Shown: positions 14,734-24,215, numbered from the stretch's first letter. The stretch: 64,000 nt of DNA from Verrucomicrobiota bacterium (GCA_016195385.1 JACPZS010000057.1:1-64000), one strand, 5' to 3'. The notes: generated from the sequence alone by a model not told the origin. Numbers and translations: made by a program.

Positions 14734-15564
14734 ATGAAGACAGTCACCCTCATCGGGGCCGGCGGCAAAATGGGCTGCCGCCTGACCGACAATTTTCTCA
14801 AGACGAACTACAAAGTTCATTACCTCGAAGTCTCGCCCAAGGGCATCGAAAACCTGAAGCAACGCGGCGTCACACTCTCGACCCAGGCCGAAGCTGTGCC
14901 GGCGGGAGATGTGGTCATCCTCGCCGTGCCGGACGTGGCCATCGGCGCCGTCGCGCGGGAAGTGGTGCCGATGATGAAGCCCGGCTCCCTGCTGATGACG
15001 CTCGATCCCGCCGCGCCGCTCGACGATCAGTTGCCGCGCCGCGCCGACATCGGCTGCGTCATCGCGCATCCGTGCCATCCGTCGGTGTTCAACTGGGAAC
15101 CGACGGAGAATGCGTTCCGTGATTTCTACGGTGGCATTTCGGCGAAGCAAGGAATCGTCGTCGCCCTCATGTGGGGCACGGAGAGCTACTACGAACTTGG
15201 CCTCGAAATCTCCACCGCCATGTATGCCCCCGTGAGCCGCGCGCATCGCGTGACCTTGGAACAGATGGCCATGCTGGAACCGGCGCTTGTCGAAACCCTG
15301 GCCCAGACGTGCATGGAAGTGGTGAAGGAAGGTCACGACCGTCTGGTTGTGGCTGGCGTGCCGAAGGACGCGGTGCGTGACTTCGTGCTCGGCCATCTGC
15401 GCATCCAGATCGCTGTGCTCTTCGGCGAGGTGAACGGCACGTTCTCCGACGCCGCCTACAAGATCAGCAAGCGCGCCAAGCCGGTGGTCTTCAAGGAAGG
15501 CTGGCAGAAAATTTTTGAGATGAACGACATCCGGGAACAGGTGCGGGACATCACGAACAAATGA
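14734..15564 (+). CDS. Phosphogluconate-dehydrogenase-like oxidoreductase resembling D-apionate oxidoisomerase (ApnO)
   Basis: 'MKTVTLIGAGGKMGCRLTDNFLKT', 'IAHPCHPSVFNWEPTENAFRDFYGGISAKQGIVVALMWG', 'APVSRAHRVTLEQMAMLEPAL'; Rossmann fold; start at the internal MKTVTLIG. Confidence 0.75.
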   Translation: MKTVTLIGAGGKMGCRLTDNFLKTNYKVHYLEVSPKGIENLKQRGVTLSTQAEAVPAGDVVILAVPDVAIGAVAREVVPMMKPGSLLMTLDPAAPLDDQLPRRADIGCVIAHPCHPSVFNWEPTENAFRDFYGGISAKQGIVVALMWGTESYYELGLEISTAMYAPVSRAHRVTLEQMAMLEPALVETLAQTCMEVVKEGHDRLVVAGVPKDAVRDFVLGHLRIQIAVLFGEVNGTFSDAAYKISKRAKPVVFKEGWQKIFEMNDIREQVRDITNK

Positions 15565-16373
15565 TCCTCGGACTTAGCAGTTACACGTTCGGTTGGGCCG
15601 TCTGCGTGCCAGGACACGCGCCAGCGCACCCACTGGACGAACATGGCTTGCTCGACAAATGCCGCGAGCATGGCATCAAGCTGCTGCAAATCGGCGACAA
15701 CTTGCCGCTGCACACGTTCGATGACGCGCGTCTGAACCGCCTGGCCGAGCGGGCAGCCCACGAAGGCGTGCAACTCGAAGTCGGCGCGCGGCGCCTGACT
15801 TTGGGAAACGTGGAAGCATACGCCGCCATCGCGCGCCGCCTCGGCGCGAAGCTGATTCGATTCGTCATCGACGACGCTGAGTATCATCCCACGCCCGAGG
15901 CAGTCTCCATTGTGCTGCGTCAAAGCGTGCCGCTGCTGGCTGGGCTCAAGCTCGGCATCGAGAATCACGACCGCTTTCCCGCCGCGCTCTTGCGCGAGAT
16001 GATCGAGAGCGCCGGCAGCGACCGCATCGGTGTGTGCCTCGACACCGCGAACTCGCTGGGCGCAGGCGAGGGTCTCGACACCGTGCTGCGCGAACTCGGC
16101 CCGCTGACGGTGAATCTTCACATCAAGGATTTTCACATCGCGCGCGTGTCGCACCTCATGGGCTTCACCGTTGAAGGTCGCCCGTCGGGCAGCGGGATGC
16201 TGGACGTGCCGGCGATGCTCGCAGATCTCGCGCCGTTCAAACGCTGTGACACCACAGTGCTGGAACTCTGGACGCCGCCCGAGACGGACATCGAGCGCAC
16301 CATAGCGAAGGAGGCAGCCTGGGCCGCGCTGAGCTTGGCGTATTTGAAGCCGCTGTTTACAACCAAGGCATGA
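15561..16373 (+). CDS. Sugar phosphate isomerase/epimerase family (xylose isomerase-like TIM barrel)
   Basis: TIM-barrel protein with 'IGVCLDTANSLGAGEGLDTVLRELGPLTVNLHIKDFH'; 4-bp ATGA overlap with the upstream gene. Confidence 0.82.
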   Translation: MILGLSSYTFGWAVCVPGHAPAHPLDEHGLLDKCREHGIKLLQIGDNLPLHTFDDARLNRLAERAAHEGVQLEVGARRLTLGNVEAYAAIARRLGAKLIRFVIDDAEYHPTPEAVSIVLRQSVPLLAGLKLGIENHDRFPAALLREMIESAGSDRIGVCLDTANSLGAGEGLDTVLRELGPLTVNLHIKDFHIARVSHLMGFTVEGRPSGSGMLDVPAMLADLAPFKRCDTTVLELWTPPETDIERTIAKEAAWAALSLAYLKPLFTTKA

Positions 16374-17416
16374 AACCACTCCGCTTCGCCATCTTCGGTG
16401 CGGGATTCTGGGCGCGATGCCAGCTCGCGGCGTGGCGGGAAGTCGGCGGCGTCGAGTGCGTCGCCATCTACAATCGCTCGCGCGACAAGGCGGAGGCGTT
16501 CGCGCGCGACTTGGGGATTCCTGCCGTCTATGTCGACGCCGAGAAGCTACTGCGCGAGGTGAAGCCGGACTTCGTGGACAACATCACCGAGGTCGGCGGC
16601 CACAAGCCGCTTTCGCTGCTCTGCGCGAAGCATCGCATCCCGTGCATCTGTCAGAAGCCGATGGCGGCGTCTCTGAAGGACGCGCGCCAGATGGTCGCGG
16701 CGTTCACGAAGGCGAAGACGCCATTCTTCGTCCACGAAAACTGGCGCTGGCAGTCGCCGATGCGGGCGCTCATCAACACGCTGCGCTCGGGCGTCATCGG
16801 CACGCCGTTCCGGGGCCGGCTGACCTTCACGAACGGTTTCGATGTCTGGGCGAACCAGCCCGCCTTGCGCGACCTGGAGCAGTTCATTCTCACGGACATT
16901 GGCACTCACGTTCTCGACACAGCGCGCGCCTGTTTCGGCGAAGCCGATTCCCTCTACTGTCAGTTGCACCGGACGCTGCGGCCCGCCGTGAAGGGCGACA
17001 ATGTCGCGACAGTGCTGCTCTCGATGGGCGAGGCGCGCACGAGTGTGGTGGTCGAACTGGCCTACGCCAAGACACCCCTGGAGCGCGAGTGCTTTCCCCA
17101 GACACTCGCGTTCGTCGAAGGTCCGCTTGGAAGCATCGAAGTCACGAACGACTACTGGCTGCGCGTCACCACGAAGAAAGGCACGCACACCCGCCATCAC
17201 GCGCCGCCACGTTACGCCTGGGCCGATCCGCGCTACGACGTCGCACAATCCAGCATGGTCGCCTGCCACCGCGATTTGCTGGCGGCGCTGCGCGGCGGGC
17301 GCGCGGCGGAGACGTCCGGGATGGACAATCTCAAGACCATGGAACTCGTATTCGCCGCCTGCGATTCGGCGCGGACAAATTCAGTCGTGACTTTCCCCCG
17401 GATGAGAACGAACTGA
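16370..17416 (+). CDS. Gfo/Idh/MocA family oxidoreductase (D-apiose dehydrogenase-like)
   Basis: 'MKPLRFAIFGAGFWARCQLAAWREVGGVECVAIYNRSRDKAEAFARDLGIPAVY', 'CQKPMAASLKDARQMV', 'HENWRWQSPMRAL'; ATGA overlap with the upstream gene. Confidence 0.85.
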   Translation: MKPLRFAIFGAGFWARCQLAAWREVGGVECVAIYNRSRDKAEAFARDLGIPAVYVDAEKLLREVKPDFVDNITEVGGHKPLSLLCAKHRIPCICQKPMAASLKDARQMVAAFTKAKTPFFVHENWRWQSPMRALINTLRSGVIGTPFRGRLTFTNGFDVWANQPALRDLEQFILTDIGTHVLDTARACFGEADSLYCQLHRTLRPAVKGDNVATVLLSMGEARTSVVVELAYAKTPLERECFPQTLAFVEGPLGSIEVTNDYWLRVTTKKGTHTRHHAPPRYAWADPRYDVAQSSMVACHRDLLAALRGGRAAETSGMDNLKTMELVFAACDSARTNSVVTFPRMRTN

Positions 17417-17455
17417 TTCACACACTGCGAAAAACGCCAGGATGCCATTAACGAT

Positions 17456-18490
17456 ATGAAACTACGCGCTTCTTTCACTGTCACACTTTCCGTTTTCCTT
17501 GGCGTGCTCCTGTGCGGCTGCGGCGGATCGGACTCCGGCGGCAACGGCCGCCCAGCGTCGTCCGCGTCCGGCACGAAGAAGCTCACGATCGGCGTGGCGT
17601 TCGAGACGCTACAGACGGAGTTCTGGGTCGCGGCCTTCGACAAACTCAAGGCCGATTGCGCAGCCAAGGGCATCACCATGCTCGAAGGCGTGGCCGACGG
17701 CGACACAAGCAAGCAATTCGATCAAGTGAAGAGCTTCATCAACCGCAAGGTGGATGGCATCATCATCGTGCCCAAGGACGGCAAGACGGTGATTCCTATG
17801 ATCAAGGCGGCGAACGCGGCGAACATCCCGGTCGTCCTCTACAACCGGCCCGCCGATCCGACCGACGCGCAGCACACCGCCGTCGCCCCGGACAACTTTG
17901 CCATCACGAAAGAGACGGTGAATTACCTCGTGTCGCTCGCGAAGAAGTCCGGCAAGAAGCAGAAGGCAATGATTCTCATGGGCGACCTGAGCGACGTGAA
18001 CGCCATCGGACGCCGCGATGGATTCGAGGCGGCCATCAAGGAAGCCGGAGACGCCGTTGAGGTTGTCGCGCGGATCCCGACCGATTGGAATCAGGAGAAG
18101 GCACTGGCTGGCGTGCAGAGCGCGATGCAAGCGAACCCGGACATTGGCCTTATCTTTACTTCAAGCGACTTCATGTTCCCGAGCATCAAGTCGGTGCTCA
18201 GCAACCTGGGCAAATGGAAGAAGCACAACGCGCCCAACCACGTCATCCTCGGCGGCTTCGATGGCGACGCCACCGCGTATCAGCTCATGGCCGAAGGCTA
18301 CGTGGACGCAACCGGTGTGCAGGATGTGTATTGGGAAGCTGAGCAGGCCATTCAGGTCATCCTCGACGCCAAGGCTGGAAAGGCCGCGCCGTCCCGTATC
18401 GACGACAAAGGCTTCGCCATCACCCAAGCGAACATGAAAGAACTGGAGCCGCGCATGTGGGGAGCAGTGGTGGCGAAGAAGAGAAAGTAG
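17456..18490 (+). CDS. Sugar ABC transporter substrate-binding protein (RbsB-like)
   Basis: Lipoprotein signal 'GVLLCGCGGSDSGG'; 'KLTIGVAFETLQTEFWVAAFDKLKADCAAKGITM' periplasmic binding protein fold. Confidence 0.9.
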   Translation: MKLRASFTVTLSVFLGVLLCGCGGSDSGGNGRPASSASGTKKLTIGVAFETLQTEFWVAAFDKLKADCAAKGITMLEGVADGDTSKQFDQVKSFINRKVDGIIIVPKDGKTVIPMIKAANAANIPVVLYNRPADPTDAQHTAVAPDNFAITKETVNYLVSLAKKSGKKQKAMILMGDLSDVNAIGRRDGFEAAIKEAGDAVEVVARIPTDWNQEKALAGVQSAMQANPDIGLIFTSSDFMFPSIKSVLSNLGKWKKHNAPNHVILGGFDGDATAYQLMAEGYVDATGVQDVYWEAEQAIQVILDAKAGKAAPSRIDDKGFAITQANMKELEPRMWGAVVAKKRK

Positions 18491-18600
18491 TTCGTTGTTA
18501 TTTGTTCGTTGTTCGTCGTTCCCGTATCGGTCGCAGTCAGCTACAAAACGAACGACTGCCTGCGAGCAACAAACAACAAACAGCGAACCAACAACAACTC
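18489..18600. repeat. GTTCGT/ACGAAC-type palindromic repeat, copy A (between rbsB-like and the four-helix-bundle gene)
   Basis: Left arm GTTCGTTGTTATTTGTTCGTTGTTCGTCGTT; right arm GAGCAACAAACAACAAACAGCGAACCAACAACAAC. Confidence 0.75.
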
Positions 18601-18601
18601 T

Positions 18602-18976
18602 ATGCCCCGTTCCAATTTTGAAAAACTTGAGTTCTATCTGGTCGCGGAGAAAATCGCCGACCAGATTTGGGATATCGTTCTTGGCTGGGATGGCTTCGCG
18701 CGGGATACGATCGGCAAGCAGATCGTTCGCGCTGCCGACAGCATCGGCGCCAATATCGCTGAAGGTGTGGGTCGAGGTTCCCACGCTGACAACAAGCGGT
18801 TCGTTCGCACGGCGCGAGGTCCTCTGAACGAGACCATTCACTTCCTCCGACGCGCCTTTCGCAGAAAGCTCCTGAGTAAAGCGCAAACCGACGCGCTAAA
18901 ACCATTGCTGGATGAACTTCCTCCACGTTTGAACGCCTACCTGAAATCCATCGGAAGCTTCCCCGACGACGAGTGA
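18602..18976 (+). CDS. Four-helix bundle protein (S23 / 23S rRNA intervening-sequence protein family)
   Basis: 'NFEKLEFYLVAEKIADQIWDIV', 'GKQIVRAADSIGANIAEGVGRGS', 'RTARGPLNETIHFLRRAFRRKLLS'. Confidence 0.85.
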   Translation: MPRSNFEKLEFYLVAEKIADQIWDIVLGWDGFARDTIGKQIVRAADSIGANIAEGVGRGSHADNKRFVRTARGPLNETIHFLRRAFRRKLLSKAQTDALKPLLDELPPRLNAYLKSIGSFPDDE

Positions 18977-19977
18977 CCACCGTCTCCCCAACAACGAACA
19001 ACGAACGACAAACAACGAACAAACTCGTTGCTTCCGAATACTTTGTCCTGTTCCTCTGCCTCGTCGTCTTCGCCGCGTTCGCCCCATTCACGCCGGACTT
19101 CGCATCATCGGGCAATCTCTGGAACATCTTCACGGCCTGCCTGCCGTTGCTCCTGCTCGCGACGGGACAGACGCTTGTGCTCATCACGGGTGGCATTGAT
19201 TTGTCCGTCACGGCCAGCATTGGATTGAGCAGCGTCGTGGGCGCGCTGGTCATGGGCGGCGACGCGGGCTGGCTGCGCGGCAGTCCGGCGGCGATGCCGG
19301 TGGCCATCGCGGCGATGCTGGCCACGGGCGCGCTGGTCGGCCTGTTCAATGGCGCGTGCATCGCGTGGCTGCGAATGCCAGCCTTCATGGTCACGCTGAC
19401 GACCACGATGTTTTTCAATGGCTTCGCCGTCTGGCTGGCAAAAAGAAATGTGGATGCCGAGAGCATCTACAACTTGCCACCGGCCTTTCTCGCCCTCGGC
19501 ACGCAGGCGTGGCTGGCGGCGTTCCTCGCGGTGGTTGCGGCCCTTGGTGCGCATCTGCTGCTGGCGCGCACGTTGCTCGGACGCTGGCTCTACGCGGTCG
19601 GGCACAACCCGCGCACGTCGCTCATCTCGGGTGTGCCCGTGGGCGGCGTCACCGTGAGCGCCTACATGCTTAACGGCGCGTTCGCCGCAATGACCGCCAT
19701 CCTGCTCACCGCGCGACTGGAGACCGGTTCTCCCAACCACGGCAAGGCGCTGCTGCTCGACGTCATCGGCGCGGCGGTCATCGGCGGCACGAGTCTCTTC
19801 GGCGGCAAGGGCAAGGTGATGTGGACCGTCTTCGGAGTGCTGTTCCTCTCGCTGCTCGGCAACGGGCTGAATCTCCTCAACCTCTCCGACTTCATGATCA
19901 CCATCATCAAGGGCGCGGTCATCCTCATCGCGGCGCTGCTGGATGTGTGGAGGAACAAGTTCGTTCGTGGTTCGTAG
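18973..19977 (+). CDS. Sugar ABC transporter permease (RbsC-like); first ~17 codons encoded by repeat sequence
   Basis: 'LLLLATGQTLVLITGGIDLSVTASIGLSSVVGAL', 'GGTSLFGGKGKVMWTVFGVLFLSLLGNGLNLL'; GTG start overlaps the stop of the four-helix-bundle gene. Confidence 0.88.
   Translation: MTTVSPTTNNERQTTNKLVASEYFVLFLCLVVFAAFAPFTPDFASSGNLWNIFTACLPLLLLATGQTLVLITGGIDLSVTASIGLSSVVGALVMGGDAGWLRGSPAAMPVAIAAMLATGALVGLFNGACIAWLRMPAFMVTLTTTMFFNGFAVWLAKRNVDAESIYNLPPAFLALGTQAWLAAFLAVVAALGAHLLLARTLLGRWLYAVGHNPRTSLISGVPVGGVTVSAYMLNGAFAAMTAILLTARLETGSPNHGKALLLDVIGAAVIGGTSLFGGKGKVMWTVFGVLFLSLLGNGLNLLNLSDFMITIIKGAVILIAALLDVWRNKFVRGS
18989..19026. repeat. ACGAAC-type half repeat, copy B (within the permease 5' end)
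   Basis: CAACAACGAACAACGAACGACAAACAACGAACAAAC immediately after the four-helix-bundle ORF. Confidence 0.75.
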
Positions 19978-20046
19978 TGTGTGGTTCGTTGAATCGCCAT
20001 GAACACGCCCACCAACAACGACGAACAACGAACGACGCACAACGAA
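19958..20046. repeat. GTTCGT/ACGAAC-type palindromic repeat, copy C (spans permease stop and ATPase start)
   Basis: Left arm AGTTCGTTCGTGGTTCGTAGTGTGTGGTTCGTTG; right arm ACCAACAACGACGAACAACGAACGACGCACAACGAAA; ATG 19999 in the loop. Confidence 0.75.
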
Positions 20047-21813
20047 ACCGTCGTTTCCTTCTCCGGCATCGAGAAATCCTTCTTCGGCGTGAAGGTGCTC
20101 AAGGGCGTGAGCTTTGACGTGGGCGCGGGAAGCATCGTGGGATTGGTCGGCGAGAACGGCGCTGGCAAGTCCACGCTGATGAACCTGCTCGGCGGCATTC
20201 TCCAGCCCGATGCCGGGGAACTGCGCGTGAACGGACAAACCTATGCGCCGCGCAATCCAAACGCCGCCCGCGCCGCCGGCATCGCCTTCGTGCATCAGGA
20301 GCTGAACCTGTTTCCGAACCTGAGCATCGCGGAAAACCTGCATCTCACCGACTTCCCGCGCGTCGGAGAGAAGATTGTTCGTGGTTCGTCGTTCGTGGTT
20401 CGTGGCGATAACGAGCCCGCAAGCGCCCCACAACGAACAACGAACAACAAACAACAAACCGGCGGTGGCCTGCCTTGGATTGACCGTCGCACTCTCCGCT
20501 CCCGCACAACGGAACTTCTACGGCAAGTCGGACTCGATCACGCGCCCGACACGCTGGTGGAATGCCTGCCGGCTGGCGAGCGGCAGCTTGTCGAGATTGC
20601 CAAGGCTCTTGGCGCGGATGCGCGCGTGATCATTCTCGATGAACCAACGACTTCGCTCTCGGCCCGTGAATGCGAGCGGCTGTTCACCTTGATGCATCAG
20701 CTTCGAAAGCGCGCCATCGCGATCATCTACATCTCGCACGCGCTCGGTGACGTGCTGCGGATCTGCGACGACCTTGTGGTCCTGCGCGACGGAGAGCGAG
20801 TCGGCGGCGGCGAGACGAAGGAATTCACACACGACCGGCTCGTCTCGCTCATGGTCGGGCGGCAGTTGAACCAGCTTTATCCGGAGCGTTCGTGTTGGGG
20901 AGCACAGGCGCCCTCGCCTGTAGCGGTCGGCGCCCTCGCCGACCACCCCGACGGCGCACGGACGGCAATGATCCAGAATCACGTCGCGAAGGATTCGAGC
21001 GCCCAAACGCGAACCGCGAGGGCGCGGTTCGCAGCAGCCGGGGCGGCTGCGCTCCCCATTCTCTCAGTCCGTTCCCTCACCCAGCCCGGCATCGCGCATG
21101 ACATCTCGTTCGATCTCGCGGCCGGCGAGGTGCTTGGCATCTCGGGCCTGATGGGTGCGGGGCGTTCCGAACTGGCGCGCATCCTTTTCGGACTCGATCC
21201 CTGCACGAGCGGCGAGATTCAACTCGCCGGGCAACTGCTCGATGGCAATCCGCGCCAACGCATCCAACGCGGCCTTGCGTTCCTCACCGAAGATCGCCGC
21301 CAAGAAGGGCTCTGCATGGAGGCATCCATCGCCGACAATATTGCGCTCGTCACGCTCACGCAGCACAGCCGAACCCCGGCGCGCTGGCTCGACTTCGCAG
21401 GCATCAAGTCCGCCGTCAGCCAGATGCGCGAAGCGGTCCGTCTCTCGCCGAAGGCGACCGACTCGCAACCTGTCCGCACGTTGAGCGGCGGCAACCAGCA
21501 AAAGGTCGTGCTTGGCAAATGGCTGCTGGCTGAACCCAAGGTGCTCATCCTCGACGAACCGACGCGCGGTATTGATGTCGGGGCAAAGTTCGAAATTTAC
21601 CAGCTCATCCACCAACTCGCCGATCGCGGGGCCGGTGTGCTGGTCATCTCGTCCGAGATCGAGGAACTCATCGGCATCTGTGATCGCCTGCTGGTGATGC
21701 GTCACGGTGAGCTCACGGGCGAGTTCCGACGCGAGGAGTTCGACCGGGAGAAGATCCTCGGTTCGGCGTTGCACGCGTCCAAACCGTTAGCAGCCGACGT
21801 GAGGAGGCTCTGA
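19999..21813 (+). CDS. Sugar ABC transporter ATP-binding protein (RbsA-like), containing two in-frame repeat-element insertions
   Basis: Two ABC domains (GENGAGKST, LMGAGRSEL, signature LSGGNQQKVVLGKWL); extra segments 'SSFVVRGDNEPASAPQRTTNNKQQTGG' and 'ERSCWGAQAPSPVAVGALADHPDG...RFAAAGAAALP'. Confidence 0.88.
   Translation: MNTPTNNDEQRTTHNETVVSFSGIEKSFFGVKVLKGVSFDVGAGSIVGLVGENGAGKSTLMNLLGGILQPDAGELRVNGQTYAPRNPNAARAAGIAFVHQELNLFPNLSIAENLHLTDFPRVGEKIVRGSSFVVRGDNEPASAPQRTTNNKQQTGGGLPWIDRRTLRSRTTELLRQVGLDHAPDTLVECLPAGERQLVEIAKALGADARVIILDEPTTSLSARECERLFTLMHQLRKRAIAIIYISHALGDVLRICDDLVVLRDGERVGGGETKEFTHDRLVSLMVGRQLNQLYPERSCWGAQAPSPVAVGALADHPDGARTAMIQNHVAKDSSAQTRTARARFAAAGAAALPILSVRSLTQPGIAHDISFDLAAGEVLGISGLMGAGRSELARILFGLDPCTSGEIQLAGQLLDGNPRQRIQRGLAFLTEDRRQEGLCMEASIADNIALVTLTQHSRTPARWLDFAGIKSAVSQMREAVRLSPKATDSQPVRTLSGGNQQKVVLGKWLLAEPKVLILDEPTRGIDVGAKFEIYQLIHQLADRGAGVLVISSEIEELIGICDRLLVMRHGELTGEFRREEFDREKILGSALHASKPLAADVRRL
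20373..20460. repeat. GTTCGT/ACGAAC-type palindromic repeat, copy D (in frame inside the ATPase CDS)
   Basis: Left arm ATTGTTCGTGGTTCGTCGTTCGTGGTTCGTGG; right arm CCCCACAACGAACAACGAACAACAAACAACAAACC. Confidence 0.8.
20896..21058. repeat. 163-bp multi-hairpin element with 8-bp terminal inverted repeats (TGGGGAGC...GCTCCCCA), in frame inside the ATPase CDS
   Basis: Terminal IRs 20896-20903 / 21051-21058; hairpins ACAGGCG-CCCT-CGCCTGT, GGTCGGCG-CCCT-CGCCGACC, GCGAACCGCG-AGGG-CGCGGTTCGC, GCAGCCG-GGG-CGGCTGC. Confidence 0.8.
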
Positions 21814-21834
21814 ATTGAACGCGCACGCCACCCC

Positions 21835-22693
21835 ATGAATCAGAGCCTCGTTACGCCGGCTGCTACGAAGAATGGGCGTGCGCCCCTGCTCCGCCTCCTA
21901 GACTTCGCACCGGTCGCCTTGTTTGCCGTCGTGCTGCTCGTGTTCGGGCTGATGTCGGACAAATTTCTTACCGCGGCCAACCTCACGCAGGTTCTCATTC
22001 AAGCGTCCTCCACTGCCGTGGTCGGCGTGGGCATGACTTTTCGTCACGCGACTCAAACTCGTCGCCTTCATCGCCACCCTCGCGACACTCTACATCGGGC
22101 GCGGGGCGGGCCGATGGATTACCCAGACGCGCGCGATGAACCTGCCCGACTCCTTCCTCGCGCTCGGCTCAGCCAAGTGGCTGGGCGTTCCCCTGCCATT
22201 GTGGATGGCTGGCACGGTCGTCGTCCTCGCGCAACTCGTGCTCTCGCACACGCCGTTCGGCCGTCAGCTCTACGCGCTCGGTCATAACGTTGAAGCCGCG
22301 AAAAAGGCTGGCTTGCGCACCACACGGCTGCTCGCGGCAGTGTATGTGATCTGCGGCGCGTGCGCGGGGCTGGGCGGCATTCTCGCGCTCTCGCAACTCG
22401 GCGCGGTCTCGCCGAAGTTCGGCGAACTTTACGAATTCGACGCCATCACGGCGGCGGTGCTTGGCGGCACGAGCCTGTTCGGCGGACGCGGCCGGGTGTT
22501 TCCCGGCACGGTGCTGGGCGCGGTGCTGCTCAAGAGCATCTTCAACGGCCTAGTCATCGTGCAGGCCGATCCCTATCTCTACCCGCTCATCACCAGCGCG
22601 ATCATCTTCGTGGCCGTGCTGCTGGACAGCCTGCGGAATAATCTCATCGTGCGCCTCGGTCGGCGAAAGATTCGAGTTGAAGAGCCATGGTGA
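21835..22693 (+). pseudogene. Second RbsC-like sugar ABC permease, disrupted by an internal deletion and frameshift
   Basis: 5' part in frame 1 ('APVALFAVVLLVFGLMSDKFLTAANLTQVLIQASSTAVVGVGMTF') and 3' part in frame 2 ('TRLKLVAFIATLATLYIGRGAGRWITQTRAMNLPDSF...GGTSLFGGRGRVFPGTVLGAVLL'); the middle membrane segment is absent. Confidence 0.8.
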
Positions 22694-22952
22694 AAATTGT
22701 CCAAAAGAAGGAGCAAAGGCTTCTAGGGATCCGTCGATGCCTCATGTCCGTATCGCCGCCAACACCCATCTGGGGTGGGGGGACATGTTCTTCCGGATTA
22801 ACGCCATGGTCGAACCCGAATCCGATCTCCGGCCGGAAGTCCGCAGGAGCCGTCCCTTCCCGATGGTTCAACTATTGGTCACCGGTCATTCCGGTGCCGC
22901 TCGCGGATTTCCAGCAGAAGAGGACAAGCTTCAAGTCATGGAAAGGTGGAAT

Positions 22953-24215
22953 CTACGGCTTGGGCTTGATGAACAGGACTTCACCCCGGTCAATCCAGCC
23001 CTTGCGCAAATCGACGCGAAACCAGCCGTCGCTGTTCTTCTTGTGAAAGCGCGTGCCTGAGCGCGGGCCGAAACCAGGCAGATCGTATTGTGCCCACGTC
23101 TTGCCCATGTCGGGCGAGTAGATGAATCCGGTGACGTAGGGCGATGCCGGCGCGTAGTGCGCGGCGAGCATCACGCCGTCCTGGATGATCATGTTTGCGC
23201 ACTCAAACTCGGGGTTAAAAAGCAGAGTGTGCGCGGCGGGATTCGCGATGTCGGCGGGGGCGCACGTAAAGATTCCGCGATCATGCTTGTCGCCTCGTTT
23301 CGGGCCGTTCGCGTCGCTGGCCCAATACAGTTTGCCGCCGACGAAATTGATGCCGCCGGATTTGTGGCGCGAGTCGGAGTTCACGGAGATGAGCACCTTC
23401 CACTCCCACTTGTCGGACTTGGCGTCGTAGGTGCCGCGCAGCCAGTGGCACTCGTCGCCTTGGCCGCGGCTGAGGTCGCCCGTGCAGGCGTAATAGGCGT
23501 TCTCGGCGGGGTTGTAGGCGACGCTGTGGATGTGGCGGCAGACGATCGGATTTTTGGCGTCGCCCAGGAACGATTTCGGCTCCGCTCCTTTTTGCTGAAA
23601 CGCCGGGTTTTGACCGAAGGAATACGCGAGCTTCACGGTCTGTCCGCTGTCGGTGGAATAGTAGATGTTCACCGGGACGGCTCCGCCCACGACATTGCAG
23701 TAATTGCCCCACACGAGCATCTCCGCGCCGTTCACGTCCCAAGTGTGCTCGCCGTCGAGCGGATGGAAATACCAGCCGGGTTCGGCTGGGTTCACCGGCA
23801 GGTGCGGGACGTAATCGCGGCCCTCGCGATCTTTCACAGTGATTGGCCGGTGCGTCCTGAGATTGTCGGTGCTCAGGAAAAGTTTCTCGCGCGTCGCGAA
23901 GAGGATGTTCCCGTTCTTCAGGAGGCAACTGAAGGTGATGTTCTCCGCGTCGGCGAACTCCGCGCGGTGCGGCCACGTCTTGCCGTTGTCTTCGGAAAGC
24001 AAGATTTTCCCGCCGCCAAACCCAAAGGCTTTGTGGTCGCGCTGCGAGTCGATGTATGGCCCGTCGGGCGCGAGGCGATACCAGAAGTGCTTCGTATCTG
24101 CGACGTCGGAAAGCGCGGCGGTGAGATCCATCGTGCCGGGCAGCCAGAGGCCGCCCGCCGTTGCCGCCGTGGCTCGCAGCCACTGCCGTCGCGTGAATTG
24201 TGATGAGTGTTTCAT
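22953..24215 (-). CDS. Tat-exported BNR/Asp-box (sialidase-fold) protein
   Basis: Tat signal 'FTRRQWLRATAATAGG'; Asp-boxes 'SEDNGKTW' and 'SPDMGKTW'. Confidence 0.75.
   Translation of the reverse strand: MKHSSQFTRRQWLRATAATAGGLWLPGTMDLTAALSDVADTKHFWYRLAPDGPYIDSQRDHKAFGFGGGKILLSEDNGKTWPHRAEFADAENITFSCLLKNGNILFATREKLFLSTDNLRTHRPITVKDREGRDYVPHLPVNPAEPGWYFHPLDGEHTWDVNGAEMLVWGNYCNVVGGAVPVNIYYSTDSGQTVKLAYSFGQNPAFQQKGAEPKSFLGDAKNPIVCRHIHSVAYNPAENAYYACTGDLSRGQGDECHWLRGTYDAKSDKWEWKVLISVNSDSRHKSGGINFVGGKLYWASDANGPKRGDKHDRGIFTCAPADIANPAAHTLLFNPEFECANMIIQDGVMLAAHYAPASPYVTGFIYSPDMGKTWAQYDLPGFGPRSGTRFHKKNSDGWFRVDLRKGWIDRGEVLFIKPKP

What the first reader, a model, noticed from the sequence alone, without database searches (positions are those of the whole stretch)
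18489..20460. Family of GTTCGT/ACGAAC palindromic elements colonising one transporter operon
Four copies within 2 kb share the arms (GTTCGT[T/G/C]GTT)n and (AACAACGAAC)n: 18489-18600, 18989-19026 (half), 19958-20046 and 20373-20460. They sit between or across gene boundaries and inside a CDS, always in the orientation whose right arm reads as open T/N/Q/E/R-rich peptide (TTNNERQTTNK, NNDEQRTTHNE, PQRTTNNKQQT). This resembles mobile palindromic elements that tolerate insertion in ORFs (as in Rickettsia), but with a distinct short-unit sequence. I do not recognise it as a named family.
Basis: partly seen in the sequence, partly recalled or inferred. Interest (0 to 1): 0.82.

Follow-up and report, generated by a model that had tools for sequence, protein, structure and literature searches.

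The report
Mobile S23-gene element with heptamer arms
The four repeats are the hairpin arms of a small mobile element that carries one helical-bundle gene (S23) plus stripped-down copies of it; the same design, with a different 7-letter repeat each time, turned up around S23 genes across many bacterial phyla, and may explain the long-puzzling 7-letter repeats scattered through bacterial genomes.

Summary
The only five 7-periodic arrays in the 64-kb window are these arms. This is one S23 element plus two S23-less palindromes (C, D). Other S23 genes in the same genome have arms of other heptamers. In 79 S23 loci from many phyla, 71% have inverted tandem-repeat arms across the gene, against 1-5% of controls; the period is 7 nt in 46 of 53 strong cases. 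On cyanobacterial plasmids 97.6% identical, the occupied and empty sites show insertion at a stop codon with a 5-bp duplication (GTAAT). In orthologous transporter operons the S23 element and the in-frame palindrome D are present in some genomes and cleanly absent in others. The element resembles 23S rRNA intervening sequences (S23 ORF in an RNA stem-loop), but lies in protein operons. I found no paper linking heptanucleotide repeats outside rRNA to S23. Mobility is shown by comparison; that S23 drives it, and that RNase III cuts the hairpin from mRNA, is inference.

The parts
18490..18521 (+). 5' (G/T-rich) arm of the S23 element, degenerate (GTTCGTN)n; starts directly at the TAG stop of the substrate-binding protein gene (18488-18490)
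   Evidence: pairs with 18989-19024 and with 18565-18599
18565..18599 (+). inner 3' (A/C-rich) arm that closes the small hairpin A just before the S23 start codon
   Evidence: same layout in G051, absent in G038
18602..18976 (+). S23 / 23S_rRNA_IVP four-helix-bundle gene, 124 aa; its stop overlaps the GTG start of the permease ORF (GTGA)
   Evidence: Pfam PF05635 E=2e-22; PDB 2gsc E=2e-5, 2rld E=1e-3; dN 0.17 / dS 1.53 against G038
18989..19024 (+). 3' arm of the S23 element, degenerate (ACGAACN)n; encodes the N-terminus of the permease ORF (TTNNERQTTNK)
   Evidence: conserved as a half-copy in G051 and G038
19958..20046 (+). S23-less palindrome C at the permease/ABC junction; carries the stop of the permease and the ATG of the ABC gene
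   Evidence: also in G051, G038, G014; absent in G136, G154; fold z only -0.9
20374..20459 (+). S23-less palindrome D, in frame inside the ABC ATPase CDS (about 33 extra codons)
   Evidence: also in G051; absent in G136, G154, G038, G014, G013; fold z -2.9
17456..18490 (+). host operon: periplasmic sugar-binding protein gene
   Evidence: PF13407 E=4e-48
18973..19977 (+). host operon: permease gene
   Evidence: PF02653 E=4e-31
19999..21813 (+). host operon: sugar ABC ATPase gene that carries insertion D
   Evidence: PF00005 E=2e-56

Best explanation
The region holds one S23-encoding mobile element (18490-19024: 5' heptamer arm, small hairpin, S23 gene, 3' heptamer arm) and two S23-less palindromic derivatives (C, D) with the same heptamer, all in one sugar-transporter operon. 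It belongs to a widespread class of elements. SHOWN by comparison: S23 genes lie inside inverted arms of degenerate 7-nt (sometimes 8-nt) tandem repeats; the unit differs from element to element and goes with its own S23 gene; the elements insert mostly in co-directional gene junctions, at or beside the upstream stop codon, once with a clear 5-bp target duplication; and S23-less versions occur at the same sites. INFERRED: the element has no promoter of its own and rides on the host mRNA. The two arms pair in any register because they are tandem repeats, giving a long RNA (or ssDNA) hairpin with S23 in the loop, as in 23S rRNA intervening sequences, which RNase III cuts out. S23, a toroidal pentamer in its solved homologue, binds the arms or loop and helps the element, and in trans the S23-less palindromes, to copy into new sites. 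Stop codons in most arms close the upstream gene; the GTTCGTN unit is stop-free and so can also sit inside a reading frame (D).
For: S23 identity. Other S23 genes in the same genome have arms of GGTTAGT, GGATTTT, GCGGATT and TTTGGGG. 29 of 35 Verrucomicrobiota-phylum loci and 56 of 79 loci from many phyla score >=28, against 1.3% of 539 shifted controls and 5.3% of 113 control ORFs, p=5e-22. Period 7 in 46 of 53. Shared unit grammar G[T/G]NN T Y A, 2.07 bits against a null maximum of 1.52, and polarity G>C in 40 of 44. Heptamer arrays >=5 in 36 of 78 S23+ and 0 of 37 S23- genomes. Of 56 strong loci, 49 are co-directional with the upstream gene and 44 with the downstream gene. Empty sites, 5-bp GTAAT duplication, S23-less and internally deleted forms at the same sites. 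The same cyanobacterial element (77-82% DNA) stands at three different plasmid sites. Two different S23 elements, a solo palindrome and empty versions of one junction within one genus. Orthologous operons with and without. S23 under purifying selection.
Against: No experiment. Only one junction gives a clean target duplication; one is ambiguous and others show small target deletions or divergence. S23 has no known catalytic domain, so a host or unknown factor may do the moving. About 29% of S23 loci lack detectable arms, and the sampling was not corrected for phylogeny. Stop codons within the arms partly force the short stop-to-arm distances. S23 is pseudogenised with arms kept in some species, so S23 is not always needed for the arms to persist. 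RNase III cutting is known only for the rRNA-borne relatives (PMC4990558).
Confidence: 0.72

Rival explanations
1. The arms are REP/MITE-type palindromes moved by a RAYT or other transposase; the S23 gene is an unrelated passenger.
For: Palindromic, partly intergenic, some inside genes; the genome has Y1-transposase (RAYT-type) genes.
Against: The Y1-transposase genes of this genome have their own, non-7-periodic palindromes or none. The heptamers carry no GTAG/CGTC-tagged REP structure. S23 genes across phyla are inside such arms and control genes are not.
Confidence: 0.08
2. The heptamers are ordinary simple-sequence repeats grown by polymerase slippage, with no element behind them.
For: 7-nt repeats are the commonest long SSR class in many genomes (literature cited in PMC4679880, PMC4692102).
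Against: Slippage does not make inverted pairs with the same unit on both sides of one gene family, nor fixed polarity, nor empty sites and a target duplication, nor zero S23-less genomes with five or more arrays.
Confidence: 0.06
3. S23 elements are real insertions, but S23 is a regulator or RNA-binding protein kept for host benefit, with mobility supplied by host recombination or template switching; the arms are mainly an mRNA processing or stability device.
For: Purifying selection on S23; strong tie to operon junctions; GTGA/ATGA start-stop overlap of S23 with the next gene in the window operon and its relatives; no transposase or RT domain.
Against: Patchy presence, S23-less copies, the same element at different plasmid sites and pseudogenes look selfish.
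Confidence: 0.3
4. The GTTCGT palindromes are ancestral native sequence of the operon.
For: Site C is shared by four genomes.
Against: Clean absence in orthologous operons of G136 and G154, absence of D in five genomes, and absence of the S23 gene in five.
Confidence: 0.03

Closest known systems
23S rRNA intervening sequences (IVS) with an S23 protein ORF (Leptospira, Coxiella, Brucella)
   Same: Homologous S23 ORF in sense orientation inside a long stem; in Coxiella tandem heptamers (GACAGAT) lie just before the ORF (PMC4990558).
   Different: Those sit in rRNA and replace a small loop; these lie in protein-coding operons at stop codons, with arms of tandem heptamers on both sides and S23-less derivatives.
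Heptanucleotide repeats: cyanobacterial STRR, Nostoc trnL intron P6b, TAACTGA of Beggiatoaceae, GGGAATC of Xanthomonas
   Same: Degenerate 7-nt tandem units; inverted pairs in Xanthomonas (70-75 per genome), close to stop codons and between co-directional genes; hairpin pairing in trnL P6b.
   Different: Those papers name no protein or mobile element; the Beggiatoaceae paper states that no transmission mechanism is evident.
Rickettsia palindromic elements (RPE)
   Same: Palindromes tolerated in frame inside genes (from general knowledge).
   Different: No S23 gene or heptamer arms are known there; different sequence (not compared here).
REP / RAYT (GTAG- and CGTC-tagged palindromes)
   Same: Small palindromes near gene ends, mobilised in trans.
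   Different: REPs are 20-40 bp hairpins with a tag and a tyrosine transposase (PMC3733652); here tandem 7-mers and S23.
Avd of diversity-generating retroelements
   Same: Four-helix-bundle pentamer related to S23 (from general knowledge).
   Different: No reverse transcriptase gene is found in this genome.

Membership tests
23S rRNA intervening sequence (IVS) | lies within an rRNA gene | tested here: not met
   no Rfam hit in window 15000-24000; no rRNA in 17 S23 loci of other phyla
23S rRNA intervening sequence (IVS) | terminal complementary arms forming a stem round the insert | tested here: met
   across loci
23S rRNA intervening sequence (IVS) | S23 ORF in the sense strand of the host transcript (ORF-bearing IVS) | tested here: met
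   PF05635, co-directional with the operon; 49 of 55 upstream neighbours co-directional
23S rRNA intervening sequence (IVS) | excised by RNase III | not testable with these tools
   needs RNA data
REP / RAYT | GTAG or CGTC tag beside a short hairpin | tested here: not met
   sequences of all copies
REP / RAYT | repeats flank a RAYT gene | tested here: not met
   three Y1-transposase genes of the genome lack 7-periodic arms
MITE | terminal inverted repeats and target duplication | tested here: inconclusive
   arms yes; 5-bp duplication clear at one plasmid site of a related element, not definable in the window
MITE | parent DNA transposon with a transposase | tested here: not met
   the only gene between the arms is S23
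heptanucleotide STRR | degenerate 7-nt tandem repeats | tested here: met
Diversity-generating retroelement (Avd) | reverse transcriptase | tested here: not met
   no PF00078 in the genome, 94.6% complete
Rickettsia palindromic element | sequence family of RPE-1 to RPE-8 | not tested
   no RPE sequences were compared

The most novel reading that the evidence does not exclude
S23 is the mobility factor of a hitherto unnamed class of mobile element, found across many bacterial phyla, that has no transposase, integrase or reverse transcriptase of its own, uses a hairpin of tandem 7-nt repeats as its recognition structure, inserts at stop codons in operons, and is the source of the heptanucleotide repeats (STRR, TAACTGA, GGGAATC) known for decades without a mechanism. 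rRNA IVS would be one special case of it.
Probability: 0.42. Interest if true: 0.94.

Novelty: new variant of a known kind. Interest (0 to 1): 0.85.

Why it matters
Two old puzzles meet here: what the very common S23 ('four helix bundle') genes do, and where the heptanucleotide repeats of cyanobacteria, xanthomonads and others come from. If S23 and the heptamer arms form one mobile element, both become testable in the laboratory, and thousands of annotated 'four helix bundle proteins' and odd N-terminal peptides (TTNNEQR-type) get an explanation. It also adds a class of element that inserts within operons without breaking them.

Tried and rejected
10-mer unit: rejected, the period is 7. Genome-wide GTTCGT family: rejected, nearly confined to this operon. 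Strict palindrome scan of the window (score >=34): does not list copies A, C, D because of mismatches, so palindrome strength alone is not the evidence. Density of solo palindromes in 200-kb samples of S23+ and S23- genomes: too few to judge. The reversed 'control' pattern is no neutral control, since it is itself a 7-periodic pattern and also tracks S23. In-place turnover of arm units at one site: rejected, because different arms go with different S23 genes, 57% or 70% aa identity. First S23 alignment too divergent to scan with. Genus searches centred on named loci are not possible. Phages: no S23 hit.

Full report
1. What is in the window. Four stretches at 18490-18599, 18989-19024, 19958-20046 and 20374-20459 are built of degenerate 7-nt tandem repeats, GTTCGTN on the left and ACGAACN on the right. 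A search for 7-periodic arrays over the 64-kb window finds five, all here; shuffled windows give 0-1. Between the first and second stretch lies a 124-aa gene of the 23S_rRNA_IVP / S23 family (PF05635, E=2e-22), with solved relatives 2gsc (XCC0516) and 2rld. The S23 stop overlaps the start of the permease ORF (GTGA; ATGA in two relatives), whose first residues are read from the right arm. RNA folding pairs the outer arms round the S23 gene. Hairpins A and D are better than all shuffles; C is not.

2. Are they insertions? Orthologous operons were taken from eight genomes of the same order. The S23 gene with arms stands between the binding-protein and permease genes in the window genome, G051 and G038 (70-74% aa identity) and is missing in G119, G014, G013, G136 and G154. 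Palindrome D, in frame in the ABC ATPase, is in the window genome and G051, and absent in G136, G154, G038, G014 and G013, where the flanking codons join directly. Palindrome C is in the window genome, G051, G038 and G014, and absent in G136 and G154. G119, the closest relative (82.5% in the binding protein), has an insert of like length but other sequence at D, and its binding-protein/permease gap resembles the 3' end of the S23 element (score 37, none of 300 shuffles as high, maximum 35), so it probably lost the element; this is suggestive only. In the window genome the GTTCGT heptamer is nearly confined to this operon. S23 is under purifying selection (dN 0.17, dS 1.53 against G038).

3. 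The general pattern. The genome has other S23 genes. Each of the four inspected lies between inverted arrays of a different heptamer: GGTTAGT, GGATTTT, GCGGATT, TTTGGGG. In 35 S23 loci of this phylum, 29 have an inverted match of score >=28 across the gene. A scan of bacterial and archaeal species genomes gave 80 loci from many phyla. Of 79 usable ones, 56 (71%) score >=28, against 1.3% of 539 shifted control centres and 6 of 113 other ORFs of 90-260 aa in the same loci (Mann-Whitney p=5e-22). Among the 53 with score >=30 the arm period is 7 nt in 46, 8 nt in 6 and 9 nt in 1. The units share a weak grammar, G-T/G-N-N-T-Y-A, with 2.07 bits against a null maximum of 1.52; the 5' arm is the G-rich one in 40 of 44. 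Over 115 genomes of the phylum, arrays fitting the pattern or its reversal number five or more in 36 of 78 genomes with S23 and in none of 37 without (Spearman 0.58); phylogeny was not corrected for.

4. Where they sit. In strong cases the upstream gene is co-directional in 49 of 55 and the downstream gene in 44 of 53; for 34 of the 49 co-directional upstream genes the 5' arm begins within 15 nt of the stop codon, and the 3' arm mostly ends 0-30 nt before the next start codon. My ORF caller is crude and most arms contain stops, so part of this is forced. But annotated examples agree: cas6-[S23]-cas4 and cas10-[S23]-cmr3 on cyanobacterial plasmids, and by reading the flanking proteins nuoC-[S23]-nuoD in Bosea and sdhA-[S23]-sdhB in Capnocytophaga. 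None of 17 loci checked lies in rRNA.

5. Mobility. S23 is on 39 plasmids, mostly cyanobacterial. Trichormus variabilis plasmid C and its 97.6% identical relatives in Tolypothrix PCC 7601 and Nostoc linckia give an occupied and an empty site. Empty: GTTAAAAAGTAATTAACAAAT. Occupied: GTTAAAAAGTAAT | AAATCAGAATTCAG...S23...GAGTTCTTCTTT | GTAATTAACAAAT. GTAAT is duplicated, over the TAA stop of the upstream gene. Nostoc C052 plasmid E has an internally deleted remnant at this site. At a second junction Nostoc C052 plasmid D and N. edaphicum have the S23 element, C057 is empty, and ATCC 53789 has an S23-less palindrome. The same kind of element (S23 CDS 77-82% identical, same AGTCAGR heptamer) stands at three unrelated plasmid sites. 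Other junctions show short target deletions or an ambiguous TTCTA duplication. In one Verrucomicrobiota genus a single junction holds two different S23 elements (57% aa identity, different arms), S23 pseudogenes with intact arms, a solo palindrome, or nothing. So the arms belong to their S23, and S23-less forms exist, like C and D in the window.

6. How it may work. Tandem repeats in both arms pair in any register, so the stem survives gain and loss of units. The homologous rRNA IVS is cut out by RNase III and carries heptamers before its S23 ORF (PMC4990558). I infer the same hairpin in operon mRNA and S23 as the protein that recognises it and aids movement, in trans for S23-less copies. Neither step is shown. 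Only 5 of 46 arms at S23 loci are stop-free in all frames; the GTTCGTN unit is of that kind, which fits the survival of D inside a gene.

7. What is known. Heptanucleotide repeats are described as STRR, as pairing units in the Nostoc trnL intron (PMC4476775), as TAACTGA in Beggiatoaceae and cyanobacteria, 'no mechanism is evident' (PMC4679880), and as GGGAATC in Xanthomonas, with 70-75 inverted pairs and a stop-codon bias, and not tied to mobile elements (PMC4692102). The IVS paper reports heptamers with S23 only in rRNA. Within the open library searched I found no work joining the two; subscription journals are largely not covered.

Noticed in passing
window 20896-21058: A second, unrelated palindrome (GGGGAGCACAGGCGCCCTCGCC...GAGGGCGCGG) gives the same ABC ATPase gene about 50 extra in-frame residues that all relatives lack; its core 19-mer is single-copy in the genome.
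   Followed up: partly
window about 21835-22693: The second permease gene is split into two ORFs in different frames, and relatives have extra sequence at the break: a pseudogene or an assembly error.
   Followed up: no
window 16370-18490: Mosaic identity: the oxidoreductase gene is 85% identical to G038 and G014 and 78% to G119, while the next gene, the binding protein, is 58-61% to G038/G014 and 82.5% to G119; suggests recombination at this locus.
   Followed up: no
L323, L332: S23 elements interrupt CRISPR-Cas operons on cyanobacterial plasmids (cas6|cas4 type I-D; cas10|cmr3 type III-B).
   Followed up: partly
L348 (Dolichospermum plasmid, cas6-cas4 gap): At the junction where Anabaena sp. 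90 has an S23 element, a different long palindrome without heptamers is present.
   Followed up: no
G274 and G296 genomes: More than 200 consensus or reversed-pattern heptamer matches each, with only 2 and 9 S23 genes: candidates for heavy spread of S23-less copies.
   Followed up: no
L319 (G000:C163): A Y1-transposase (RAYT-type) gene flanked by long non-7-periodic inverted repeats with a CCCGGCTTCAGCCGGG core.
   Followed up: no
L031, L101 (G051:C116): G051 holds a second, partial ABC gene copy with palindrome D on another contig than its main operon.
   Followed up: no
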